Shown: positions 26,001-29,000 of the stretch, in pieces | Numbering within the stretch: position 1 is the stretch's first letter | Layout of the letters: each line of letters begins with the position of its first letter | Assembly: GCA_028015205.1 (NCBI GenBank) | Contig: CM051519.1 | Location: 95,129,539 to 95,193,538, forward strand | Origin: Mytilisepta virgata | Lineage: Eukaryota; Mollusca; Bivalvia; Mytilida; Mytilidae | Direction: 5' to 3' | Length of the DNA stretch: 64,000 nt | Made by a program: the position numbers and the translations under genes | The notes under the pieces: model-generated | What the model saw: only the letters and a program-made list of their open reading frames with translations | The model's database searches: none | Told to the model about the DNA's origin: nothing

Positions 26001-29000
26001 TGTAAGCTCTGCTTCAATAACCTATATTAAGTTTTCTTATGAGGCACTTCACAGAGGTTGTAATAACAATATCGTAAAATAATAAATACTTGTACAGTAG
26101 ATGGTATATACAGTCAATAATTGACTATGTCGAATCCGTTGGGACCTGAAAATCTAGTTAGACTTATCAGGAGTAAATCTGTATAGTTACTGCTGTTTAG
26201 GGTCCAAACATATAATTTGAGTTACCCATAATTTCGACTTAAATGTGTTTGAGATAACGAGAGTCAAATGTACATGGAAATCAAAATCAATTACCTCTGC
26301 TTACAATGAATTAATACTATAATTTCAGAAATTAGTTATGAATATTTTAAGAAACATGAACTAGAGCCTGGAGTCAGCCTGAATCACTCACCTTGAAGTA
26401 GATAACATTCTGCAGATTTTATATTGTTTGTATATAAAGGCTTAGTTAATTAGAACCTTCCATATTCCTGGTAACTTTGGTTAATATTGGCTTTGTAGTT
26501 TCAGAGAAACTGATTTCCCAAAGGCTTCAATATAAACTTATAACTTAGCCGCCGTGTATGCAATCAGATAAACACAAAATTTGGAAATATGAACAAACAG
26601 AATCAAGAATTTCCTCTGGCTGCTGTTTTTTATCTGGTGGGAATGACTTGAAGAAATTTCATAGATACCTTTTCATACATTATTTCTGCAAAGTTTGGTT
26701 TAAATTGGGACAGTGATTTTAGAGGAGATGATGAATTCATACACAAAATGATAGCATAAGCTCACATGGCCCCTTGGGGAAGGTGGGCTAAAAATGTGAC
26801 ACGATGAGCATTAATCCTCATTCTAAAATAACTTCCCTCTTTGCCTATATAAACAATAAATAACCCCTCTTTGCCTATATAAATAATCTAATCTAACCTC
26901 CCTCTTTGCCTATATAAACAATTTAATCTAACCTCCATCTTTGCCTATATAAACAATTTAATCTAACCTACCTCTTTGCCTATATAAACAATCTAATCTA
27001 ACACCCCTCTTTGCCTATATAAACAATCTAATCTAACCTACATCTTTGCCTATATAAACAATCTAACCTAACATCCTTCATTGCCTATATAAACAATTTA
27101 ATCTAACCTCCATCTTTGCCTATATAAACAATCTAATCTAACCTCCCTCTTTGCCTATATAAACAATTTAATCTAACCTCCCTCTTTGCCTATATAAACA
27201 TCTAATCTAACACCGCTCTTTGCCTATATAAACAAGACAAATAGAATCCTGTTGTTCATATGTTTTTTACATATCATGAGTTAGTCATATACATGTGTAT
27301 TGCAGAAAACCACATAAATATAACATTGTTTTTACAAGGATAAGCTCTGCCAGAAGTCCCTCTGAACAGTCCACTGACTTATGAGATTGAAAATACTGTA
27401 TTTGAATTAAAATAATTCTAACTTTAAACCGTAACACTGTAAACTTACACCATAACACTGTAACCTTACACCATAACACTGTAAACTTACACCATAAACC
27501 TGCAAACTTACACCACAACACTGTAAACTTACACCATAACACTGTAACCTTACACCATAACACTGTAACCTTACACCATAACACTGTAAACTTACATCTT
27601 GAAAGTCTATTTTTCCTCTCGGTTCCACAAACACAGGTTTATACTGCGTTATTCGGTTGTATATATTATTTTCCTAAAAAAAAAAGAGAAAAAAATAAGT
27701 AAAAAATATATCTGCTTTACCCATTATTATTTCAAATGGTAAAACTGGCTAAAACAATCCAACAGGTGAGATTAAATTAACAGCCCAAGTTCTGAAGTAT
27801 GAAATTAAACAATGCAGAAATATTTTGTTCAATAACATTGGTAAACTAGAGAATGTGTATGTAAGACATGGATGTCCTGAACTCAAGCATGAAATTTAGG
27901 CTGTTGGCTCATATGTTGCTGATCTGTGTTGAACTAAAAAAGATGATTGTAGTTGTAGAATATTATTAAAATATCATCAGGTTTAAAAAATGGAATAAAA
28001 TGCAAAAATATAACCAAAGTCACTCAAGCATAAAATGTAGGTCATACTGACTCAAAATTGCTATGTGGCAATATAAGTTGACAGTAACTTTGAAACTGTG
28101 AATTAAGTTTTTTATCCTACAATGAACTTTTGATCTCGTCCCTAAGATGAATGAAGTTCTGTAATATCAGTGACATCTCAGTAGGTTTCTGAGAAACAGA
28201 CCAAAACATAAACTAGAGGCTCACAGGGCTGGGCATGTATTGCTCACCTGGCATGAAAGCTGTTTTTATATTGATGTACCTTCCATAGATACTTTCTGTC
28301 AAGTTTGGCTCAACAGTTTCAGAGAAAAAAATGTTTTCTTTAAAATTAACCAATCAGAAACAAGAATTGCCCATGGCAGCCATGTTTGATCTGGACAAAA
28401 TGAGTAAACTCTGTAAAAATTCTCCCACAGATGCTTCTTGTCAAGTTTCGTTCCATTTGGTGAACCGGTTTCAGAGAAGATTCCTTTACATCAGCCAATC
28501 AGAAACAAGAATTGCCCATGGCAGCCATGCTTGTTTTCCAATCAGGATGAAAAAAATTAATTTCATATGACCTTCAATAGATGCTACATGTCAAGTTTGG
28601 TTGACGGTTTTGGCCATGCAGTTCCAGAGAAAATTTTTTTCTCTCTCTGTGTTCATATGTTTTAGTCGTTCTTTGCCCTTTGAACAGCTCACAGATTCCA
28701 TATATATGTTTTAGTCGTTCTTTGCCCTTTGAACAGCTCACAGATTCCATATATGTGTTTTAGTCGTTCTTTGCCTTTGAAAAGCTCACATATTCCATAT
28801 ATATGTTTTAGTCGTTCTTTGCCCTTTGAACAGCTCACATATTCCATATATATGTTTTAGTCGTTCTTTGCTCTTTGAACAGCTCACATATTCCATATAT
28901 ATGTTTTAGTCGTTCTTTGCCCTTTGAACAGCTCACATATTCCATATATATTCCTTGTATTATATTATCAACAATTCAATATATATTTTACTTAAATCTA

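What the first reader, a model, noticed from the sequence alone, without database searches (positions are those of the whole stretch)
27425..27673. A splice donor amplified into a tandem array
On the minus strand the RTEL1 exon 27,596-27,673 ends at GTAAGTTTACAGTGTT. That sequence is then repeated about eight times at 21-bp spacing, each copy bringing a GTAAG(T/G) donor and a TTTACAG acceptor-like motif. The array seems to have grown from the splice site itself. Decoy donors could shift exon length in 21-nt (seven-codon) steps and keep the frame.
Basis: partly seen in the sequence, partly recalled or inferred. Interest (0 to 1): 0.8.

Follow-up and report, generated by a model that had tools for sequence, protein, structure and literature searches.

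The report
Splice donor inside a minisatellite
In a mussel-like telomere helicase gene (RTEL1), the start of one intron, splice signal included, stands eight times in a row at 21-base steps; the human gene IFI6 is a known case of the same kind, and whether this animal uses the extra signals is untested.

Summary
On the minus strand the RTEL1 exon 27673-27596 ends at GAT|GTAAGT. The intron then begins with eight 21-bp copies (27595-27428), each starting GTAAGT (5) or GTAAGG (3). Periodicity starts within 1 bp of the exon-intron junction. No other copy of the unit was found in the 1.03-Gb genome (26-base pattern, up to 3 mismatches), so the array was most likely born here. That it grew from the donor itself fits best but is not polarised. 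The array is open in the exon frame, so use of donors 2-8 would add 7 codons per step. Nothing shows that they are used: none of the 120 listed RTEL1 homologues (of 2409) has an insertion there, and none appears to be from this species. Best reading: a locally born, apparently young minisatellite overlapping a 5' splice site, tolerated because the first donor still works. The kind is known (human 6-16/IFI6). A second locally unique array (97 bp x 37) starts 9 nt after another donor of the same gene, and one acceptor lies in a 2-copy tandem duplication, in a repeat-dense region about 0.4 Mb from a TTAGGG block. Clustering at donors is only suggestive (post hoc P 0.0045-0.0735); acceptors show none.

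The parts
27596..27673 (-). RTEL1 exon (ENNIYNRITQYKPVFVEPRGKIDFQD), phase 0 at both ends
   Evidence: no insertion at the junction to the next exon in 120 of 120 listed homologues
27575..27595 (-). Copy 1 of the 21-bp unit, the 5' splice site GAT|GTAAGT placed by homology
27428..27574 (-). Copies 2-8 of the 21-bp unit, each with a GTAAGT or GTAAGG decoy donor; open in the exon frame
   Evidence: no copy found elsewhere
27410..27427 (-). Degenerate tail after copy 8 (LKLELF), followed by an in-frame TAA (27409-27407)
26822..27235 (-). Second minisatellite of the same intron, 35 bp x 12, unit holding TTTATATAG|GCAAAG (acceptor-like); mid-intron, not at the real acceptor
25880..25957 (-). Next RTEL1 exon (TMFEFYDKINDPSLNGAIFVAVCRGK), acceptor CTTTTTAG|ACT
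23704..23844 (-). RTEL1 exon VSEGLDFADENG...GKQGVK, donor AAG|GTAGGA at 23703
20082..23694 (-). 97-bp x 37 array starting 9 nt inside the donor of exon 23844-23704; carries AAG|GTAAAA (25 exact) and AAG|GTAGTT (37) donor-like sites; no copy found elsewhere
   Evidence: 36 of 36 genome hits of a 35-base piece lie here

Best explanation
A locally born, apparently young minisatellite overlapping a 5' splice site. A slippage or unequal-exchange event tandemly duplicated about the first 21 bases of this RTEL1 intron, starting within 1 bp of the exon-intron junction; later rounds, probably of several units at once, took it to eight copies. Selection keeps the exon and copy 1 intact. Splicing most likely uses copy 1 nearly always. 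Copies 2-8 are U1-competent decoys that could be used at low level, lengthening the exon by 21 nt (7 codons) per step in frame. Shown: anatomy, no other copy found in the genome, open frame, donor-like strength. Inferred: youth, origin from the donor, dominance of copy 1, low decoy use, no adaptive role.
For: Periodicity begins at exon position -1 and no copy carries the exon tail. The unit was found only here in 1.03 Gb. Copies 1 and 2 recur as copies 6 and 7, letter for letter, which fits multi-unit duplication with copy 1 as a full member. Splicing at copy 1 gives the uninterrupted protein seen in 120 of 120 listed RTEL1 homologues (a gap of up to 1 residue counted as none). Decoys score within the range of the gene's own donors, below the real one on the recalled PWM and slightly better on U1 pairing. 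The gene is rich in tandem arrays: 43 in 72 kb against 14 in 99 kb of 30 myosin-exon loci, same TRF settings (those loci are 3.2-3.6 kb pieces, which cut arrays short, and some are near-duplicates).
Against: No RNA evidence either way. Origin from the donor is not polarised. The two measures of donor strength disagree on which copy is best. The 21-nt step and open frame could be read as selection, though two of three frames are open and a frame of 7 AT-rich codons is open by chance about half the time (inference). The age of the intron itself was not tested.
Confidence: 0.68

Rival explanations
1. The array is a working splice-length device: the spread of U1 on eight donors sets exon length in 7-codon steps and tunes how much full-activity RTEL1 is made.
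For: All eight copies are open in the exon frame; decoys are donor-like; IFI6 is said to use two downstream repeat units as donors (PMC4526556, passage seen).
Against: None of the 120 listed homologues (of 2409) has an insertion at this place; no transcript evidence; a second frame is open as well; no sign of conservation could be sought, since no related genome was held.
Confidence: 0.1
2. The array arose inside the intron and reached the donor later by unequal exchange or conversion; the donor was captured by the array rather than being its seed.
For: The intron holds another, unrelated minisatellite (35 bp x 12), and arrays with GTAAGT units are common in the genome. A degraded ninth copy start (GGTTTAAAGTTAGA) lies downstream.
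Against: The left edge falls within 1 bp of the junction and copy 1 is a consensus copy identical to copy 6.
Confidence: 0.18
3. In this genome region splice sites seed tandem arrays: duplication starts preferentially at donors or acceptors. (Not exclusive of the best explanation.)
For: Two arrays start within 12 nt of a donor (-1 and +9) against 0.12-0.42 expected (P 0.0045-0.0735 by array cut-off); no other copy of either was found in the genome; one acceptor of the same gene lies in an 83-bp, 2-copy tandem duplication.
Against: Post hoc window and cut-offs; one gene. Acceptors show no excess: 1 array edge within 12 nt against 0.38 and 0.31 expected at the two loose cut-offs, 0 against 0.16 and 0.10 at the two strict ones. 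0 of 30 myosin-exon loci have an array within 12 nt of the picked donor (nearest 52), though arrays are few there and several donor picks score poorly.
Confidence: 0.08
4. Assembly error: the copies are a collapse or expansion artefact.
For: Tandem arrays are prone to copy-number error.
Against: Several copies differ by substitutions and the array is only 168 bp, short enough to lie within one long read (how this genome was sequenced is not known to me).
Confidence: 0.02

Closest known systems
Human 6-16 / G1P3 / IFI6 minisatellite (Turri, Cuin and Porter 1995, Nucleic Acids Res 23:1854; title seen in the reference lists of PMC4526556 and PMC2572611; the paper itself is not held)
   Same: A minisatellite that provides multiple splice donors; two downstream repeat units used as donors give three mRNA species (PMC4526556 introduction passage).
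   Different: There the unit is about 12 bp (recalled, from no call) and use is reported; here the unit is 21 bp, in another gene and phylum, and use is untested.
Intron gain by tandem duplication (PMC4974935; passages seen): potato RdRp gene, ATP2A1, and 24-bp exonic repeats with AGGT in fission yeast genes
   Same: Tandem duplication copies splice signals; in the yeast genes a short unit is repeated several times and an intron spans some of the copies; the potato duplication crosses an intron-exon boundary on the acceptor side, as two duplications noticed here in the same gene do.
   Different: Here the unit lies wholly in the intron, neither flanking exon repeats it, and no new intron is seen; an existing donor is multiplied.
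Internal tandem repeats that change exon-intron structure in human segmental duplications (De Grassi and Ciccarelli 2009, PMC2812944; outline and passages seen)
   Same: Minisatellite expansion (mean unit 30 bp, repeated 4 times) alters exons and introns and can activate cryptic splice sites.
   Different: Those are paralogues differing in repeat number, not amplification of one working donor.

Membership tests
Minisatellite that provides multiple splice donors (IFI6 type) | Tandem array of 10-100 bp units at the exon-intron boundary | tested here: met
   21 bp x 8, periodicity from exon position -1
Minisatellite that provides multiple splice donors (IFI6 type) | Each unit carries a donor consensus | tested here: met
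   8 of 8 GTAAG(T/G); PWM 0.53-4.06, U1 duplex -5.4 to -6.4 kcal/mol (PWM and U1 end recalled)
Minisatellite that provides multiple splice donors (IFI6 type) | More than one unit is used as a donor in mRNA | not testable with these tools
   No RNA of this species held; 120 of 120 listed homologue proteins lack an insertion, but none appears to be from this species
Minisatellite that provides multiple splice donors (IFI6 type) | Extended transcripts keep the reading frame | tested here: met
   Open through copy 8, stop after it
Intron gain by tandem duplication | A new intron bounded by splice sites that come from copies of one duplicated segment | tested here: not met
   The acceptor (25958) is about 1.5 kb from the array and neither flanking exon carries the unit. 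The age of the intron was not tested.

The most novel reading that the evidence does not exclude
Splice sites act as seeds for tandem array birth in this subtelomeric, repeat-dense gene (two donors and one acceptor of RTEL1 affected), so that a telomere-length helicase carries variable-copy donor arrays whose copy number, and hence exon length and RTEL1 activity, may differ between individuals.
Probability: 0.07. Interest if true: 0.75.

Novelty: new member of a known kind. Interest (0 to 1): 0.38.

Why it matters
Eight near-equal donors at a fixed spacing, in frame, are a natural test of how the spliceosome picks among neighbouring 5' splice sites, and a second case far from human IFI6 would show that minisatellites catch donors repeatedly. 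If array edges do cluster at splice sites, that would say something new on where tandem repeats are born. As it stands it is an uncommon but explicable repeat, with no evidence of use.

Tried and rejected
Dispersed repeat or transposon origin of the 21-bp unit: rejected, no copy found elsewhere (the tool states that DNA search skips simple repeats and very common words). Origin of the 97-bp array from a dispersed element: rejected, 36 of 36 hits of a 35-base piece are local. Descent of the unit from the exon tail: 11 of 21 bases match at the exact offset, reached by 2% of intron offsets; too weak to claim. The 35-bp array as an amplified acceptor: the real acceptor is at 25958, so the array is mid-intron and only acceptor-like. 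A general test of donors as seeds with myosin exons: 30 loci of 94 matches were used; 0 of 30 with an array within 12 nt, but only 14 arrays in 98,922 bases, so little power. In one search minus-strand loci were read in the wrong orientation; one search replaces its donor picks. Exons N2, e15 and e16 were in the permutation list (26 exons; ends of N2 and e16 approximate) but left out of the donor scoring (23 donors, best GT within 6 nt of the mapped end, the finding's own donor included). Pfam 'S1CSD-TOTE-1' matches (whole-protein E 3.4e-11 to 1.2e-7, 0 stretches passing on their own) are taken as an artefact of reading through a tandem repeat. MSY2 minisatellite of DDX3Y (PMC3039753, passages): a start-site repeat; the passages seen do not place its splice donors in the repeat units; set aside. 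Paper searches on donor arrays: (two found no paper), and on subtelomeric minisatellites (listing only, not used). Among the titles listed I saw no further donor array; papers opened: PMC2572611, PMC4526556, PMC2812944, PMC3039753, PMC4974935, all by passages (PMC2812944 also by outline).

Full report
What was checked. The minus strand of 27,200-27,900 was read and scanned for tandem repeats. The exon GAAAATAATATATACAACC...CAAGAT ends at 27596 and is followed at once by GTAAGTTTACAGTGTTATGGT, eight copies without an indel (27595-27428), then by a degenerate tail. Base 6 by copy is T, G, G, T, T, T, G, T; copy 4 also has TGT for TAT, copy 5 has TTTGCAGGTT, copy 8 has TAC for TAT; copies 6 and 7 equal copies 1 and 2 (copies 2, 3 and 7 are identical). 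A comparison of each base with the base 21 further on matches nearly continuously from exon position -1; further upstream matches are scattered.

Which gene. The best named hits are Mytilus edulis and M. galloprovincialis; over 637 aligned residues of a composite the identity is 88.5% and 88.4%, and two unnamed proteins stand at 88.7% (613 residues) and 88.1% (637) (six proteins compared). The window is thus from a mussel-like bivalve, apparently not among the listed proteins. The next exon is 25957-25880, giving ...KIDFQD|TMFEFY..., in phase. In 120 of 120 listed homologues (2409 found in all) nothing, or at most one residue by the criterion used, is inserted at this junction, and none of the 120 holds the array peptide motifs searched for. 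Exons on either side match Helicase_C_2 (29267 exon, E 0.0021, below the curated cut-off; 23844 exon, E 2.5e-10), so extended proteins, if made, would carry 7-residue steps between matched parts of the helicase domain; that this would harm the enzyme is inference.

Uniqueness. DNA search of the own genome (1.03 Gb, 109 contigs) finds only this place. A 26-base pattern with up to three mismatches finds eight hits, all here, against none for the reversed pattern. Arrays with GTAAGT units are, however, common in the genome: 6779 hits of three GTAAGT with gaps of 8-38 bases against 3701 for the reversed control. Only the first places are listed and most of them lie in one array of about a hundred 20-bp units on C1, so the counts are not independent. 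A donor-like hexamer in a tandem array is not by itself remarkable; its place at a real donor is.

Could the decoys work? With a recalled donor matrix copy 1 scores 4.06, copies 4, 5, 6 and 8 score 1.74 and copies 2, 3 and 7 score 0.53; 23 donors of the gene (this one included) range from -1.06 to 5.48 and 5 of 23 are at or below 1.74. Predicted pairing with the recalled U1 end is -5.4 kcal/mol for copy 1 and -5.8 to -6.4 for the others, the program choosing the register. The decoys are thus comparable with the weaker of the gene's own donors on one measure and with the real site on the other. The exon frame through the array is open (V S/R L Q C Y G, with variants), with a TAA 18 nt after copy 8; one of the other two frames is open too. 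None of this shows use.

A second array at a donor. The 97-bp x 37 array (20082-23694) starts 9 nt inside the donor of exon 23844-23704 and carries AAG|GTAAAA (25 exact) and AAG|GTAGTT (37). No copy was found elsewhere: 36 of 36 hits of a 35-base piece, up to 3 mismatches, lie here. In 72 kb of gene with 26 exons, two arrays start within 12 nt of a donor. Expected from random placement: 0.42 (43 arrays, P 0.0735), 0.31 (33 arrays, P 0.041), 0.17 (16 arrays, P 0.011), 0.12 (11 arrays, P 0.0045). The window of 12 nt and the cut-offs were set after the cases were known, so this is a hint. At acceptors there is no excess: 1 array edge against 0.38 and 0.31 expected at the two loose cut-offs, 0 against 0.16 and 0.10 at the two strict ones. 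The one acceptor case is an 83-bp two-copy tandem duplication. Among 30 myosin-exon loci no array lies within 12 nt of the picked donor (nearest 52), but arrays are few there, 14 in 98,922 bases, some loci are near-duplicates and several donor picks score poorly.

Where it lies. The gene is near the end of C12. A 5-kb probe at 95.600 Mb holds 449 TTAGGG, and the first 5 kb of C12 hold 368 CCCTAA (fetched, counted); 500-base probes at 95.30, 95.40, 95.50 and 95.56 Mb hold neither. The contig runs on for about 0.28 Mb past the TTAGGG probe, with 2 and 3 TTAGGG in the two 5-kb probes beyond it, so either the tract is internal or the last stretch is misplaced. The donor array is about 0.44 Mb and the gene's first mapped exon about 0.38 Mb from that block. 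Two mid-chromosome 5-kb probes held 2 and 0 arrays. A repeat-dense, subtelomeric setting is a plain possible reason for many minisatellites in one gene; the sample is too small to prove it.

Known precedent. The human interferon-induced gene 6-16 (IFI6, G1P3) has a minisatellite that provides multiple splice donors (Turri, Cuin and Porter 1995; title seen in two reference lists; the paper is not held). PMC4526556 says that two downstream repeat units serve as donors and give three mRNA species (passage). PMC4974935 (passages) reviews intron gain by tandem duplication, including 24-bp exonic repeats with AGGT in fission yeasts and a potato duplication across an intron-exon boundary. De Grassi and Ciccarelli (PMC2812944, passages) describe minisatellites that reshape exons and introns in human duplicated genes. 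The present case is of the IFI6 kind by anatomy; the defining functional feature, use of several units, could not be tested.

Verdict. Observation confirmed, interpretation partly supported. It is most likely a local minisatellite that took in a donor, with the first copy still doing the work. Interest is moderate because the kind is known and use is unproven; the cluster of splice-site-linked tandem duplications in one gene is the part worth a genome-wide count.

Noticed in passing
window 20082-23694: 97-bp x 37 tandem array, no copy found elsewhere in the genome, starting 9 nt after the donor of RTEL1 exon 23844-23704; carries donor-like AAG|GTAAAA and AAG|GTAGTT sites.
   Followed up: partly
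L003:3086-3254 (G000:C12:95206624-95206792): 83-bp two-copy tandem duplication that includes the acceptor of an RTEL1 exon (TTTTATCTTTTAG|CGGTA twice); compare the potato intron-gain case of PMC4974935.
   Followed up: partly
window 63412-63524: 60-bp imperfect tandem duplication (44 of 53 bases alike) of the start of an RTEL1 exon (RVCPYYLAREL...); the upstream, decayed copy now forms the intron end with its TTTTATTTTACAG acceptor.
   Followed up: partly
window 23839-23847: RTEL1 exon begins CAG|GTAAGTGAAGG, so that splicing to the previous exon (GGAAAG) rebuilds a donor AAG|GTAAGT, as at recursive-splicing exons (recalled idea); the VSEG residues recur in the three mussel-like proteins.
   Followed up: no
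window 15516-16655: 63-bp x 18 array (21 codons per unit) with a 277-codon open stretch on the minus strand, between two RTEL1 exons.
   Followed up: no
window 26822-27235: 35-bp x 12 array in the same intron as the donor array, units with TTTATATAG acceptor-like ends.
   Followed up: partly
L073 (G000:C12:95600001-95605000) and L076 (G000:C12:1-5000): TTAGGG and CCCTAA blocks broken by other sequence; C12 goes on about 0.28 Mb beyond the L073 block, so the contig end may be misplaced or the block internal.
   Followed up: partly
G000:C1:3099492-3101497: About one hundred copies of a 20-bp unit GTAAGTGTACGATGTGAGTT; genome-wide 6779 hits of three spaced GTAAGT against 3701 for the reversed pattern, not independent.
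   Followed up: no
G000:C70:3346117-3359352 and G000:C11:45048338-45064128: Myosin matches at the same profile places on two contigs: possibly a retained second haplotype.
   Followed up: no
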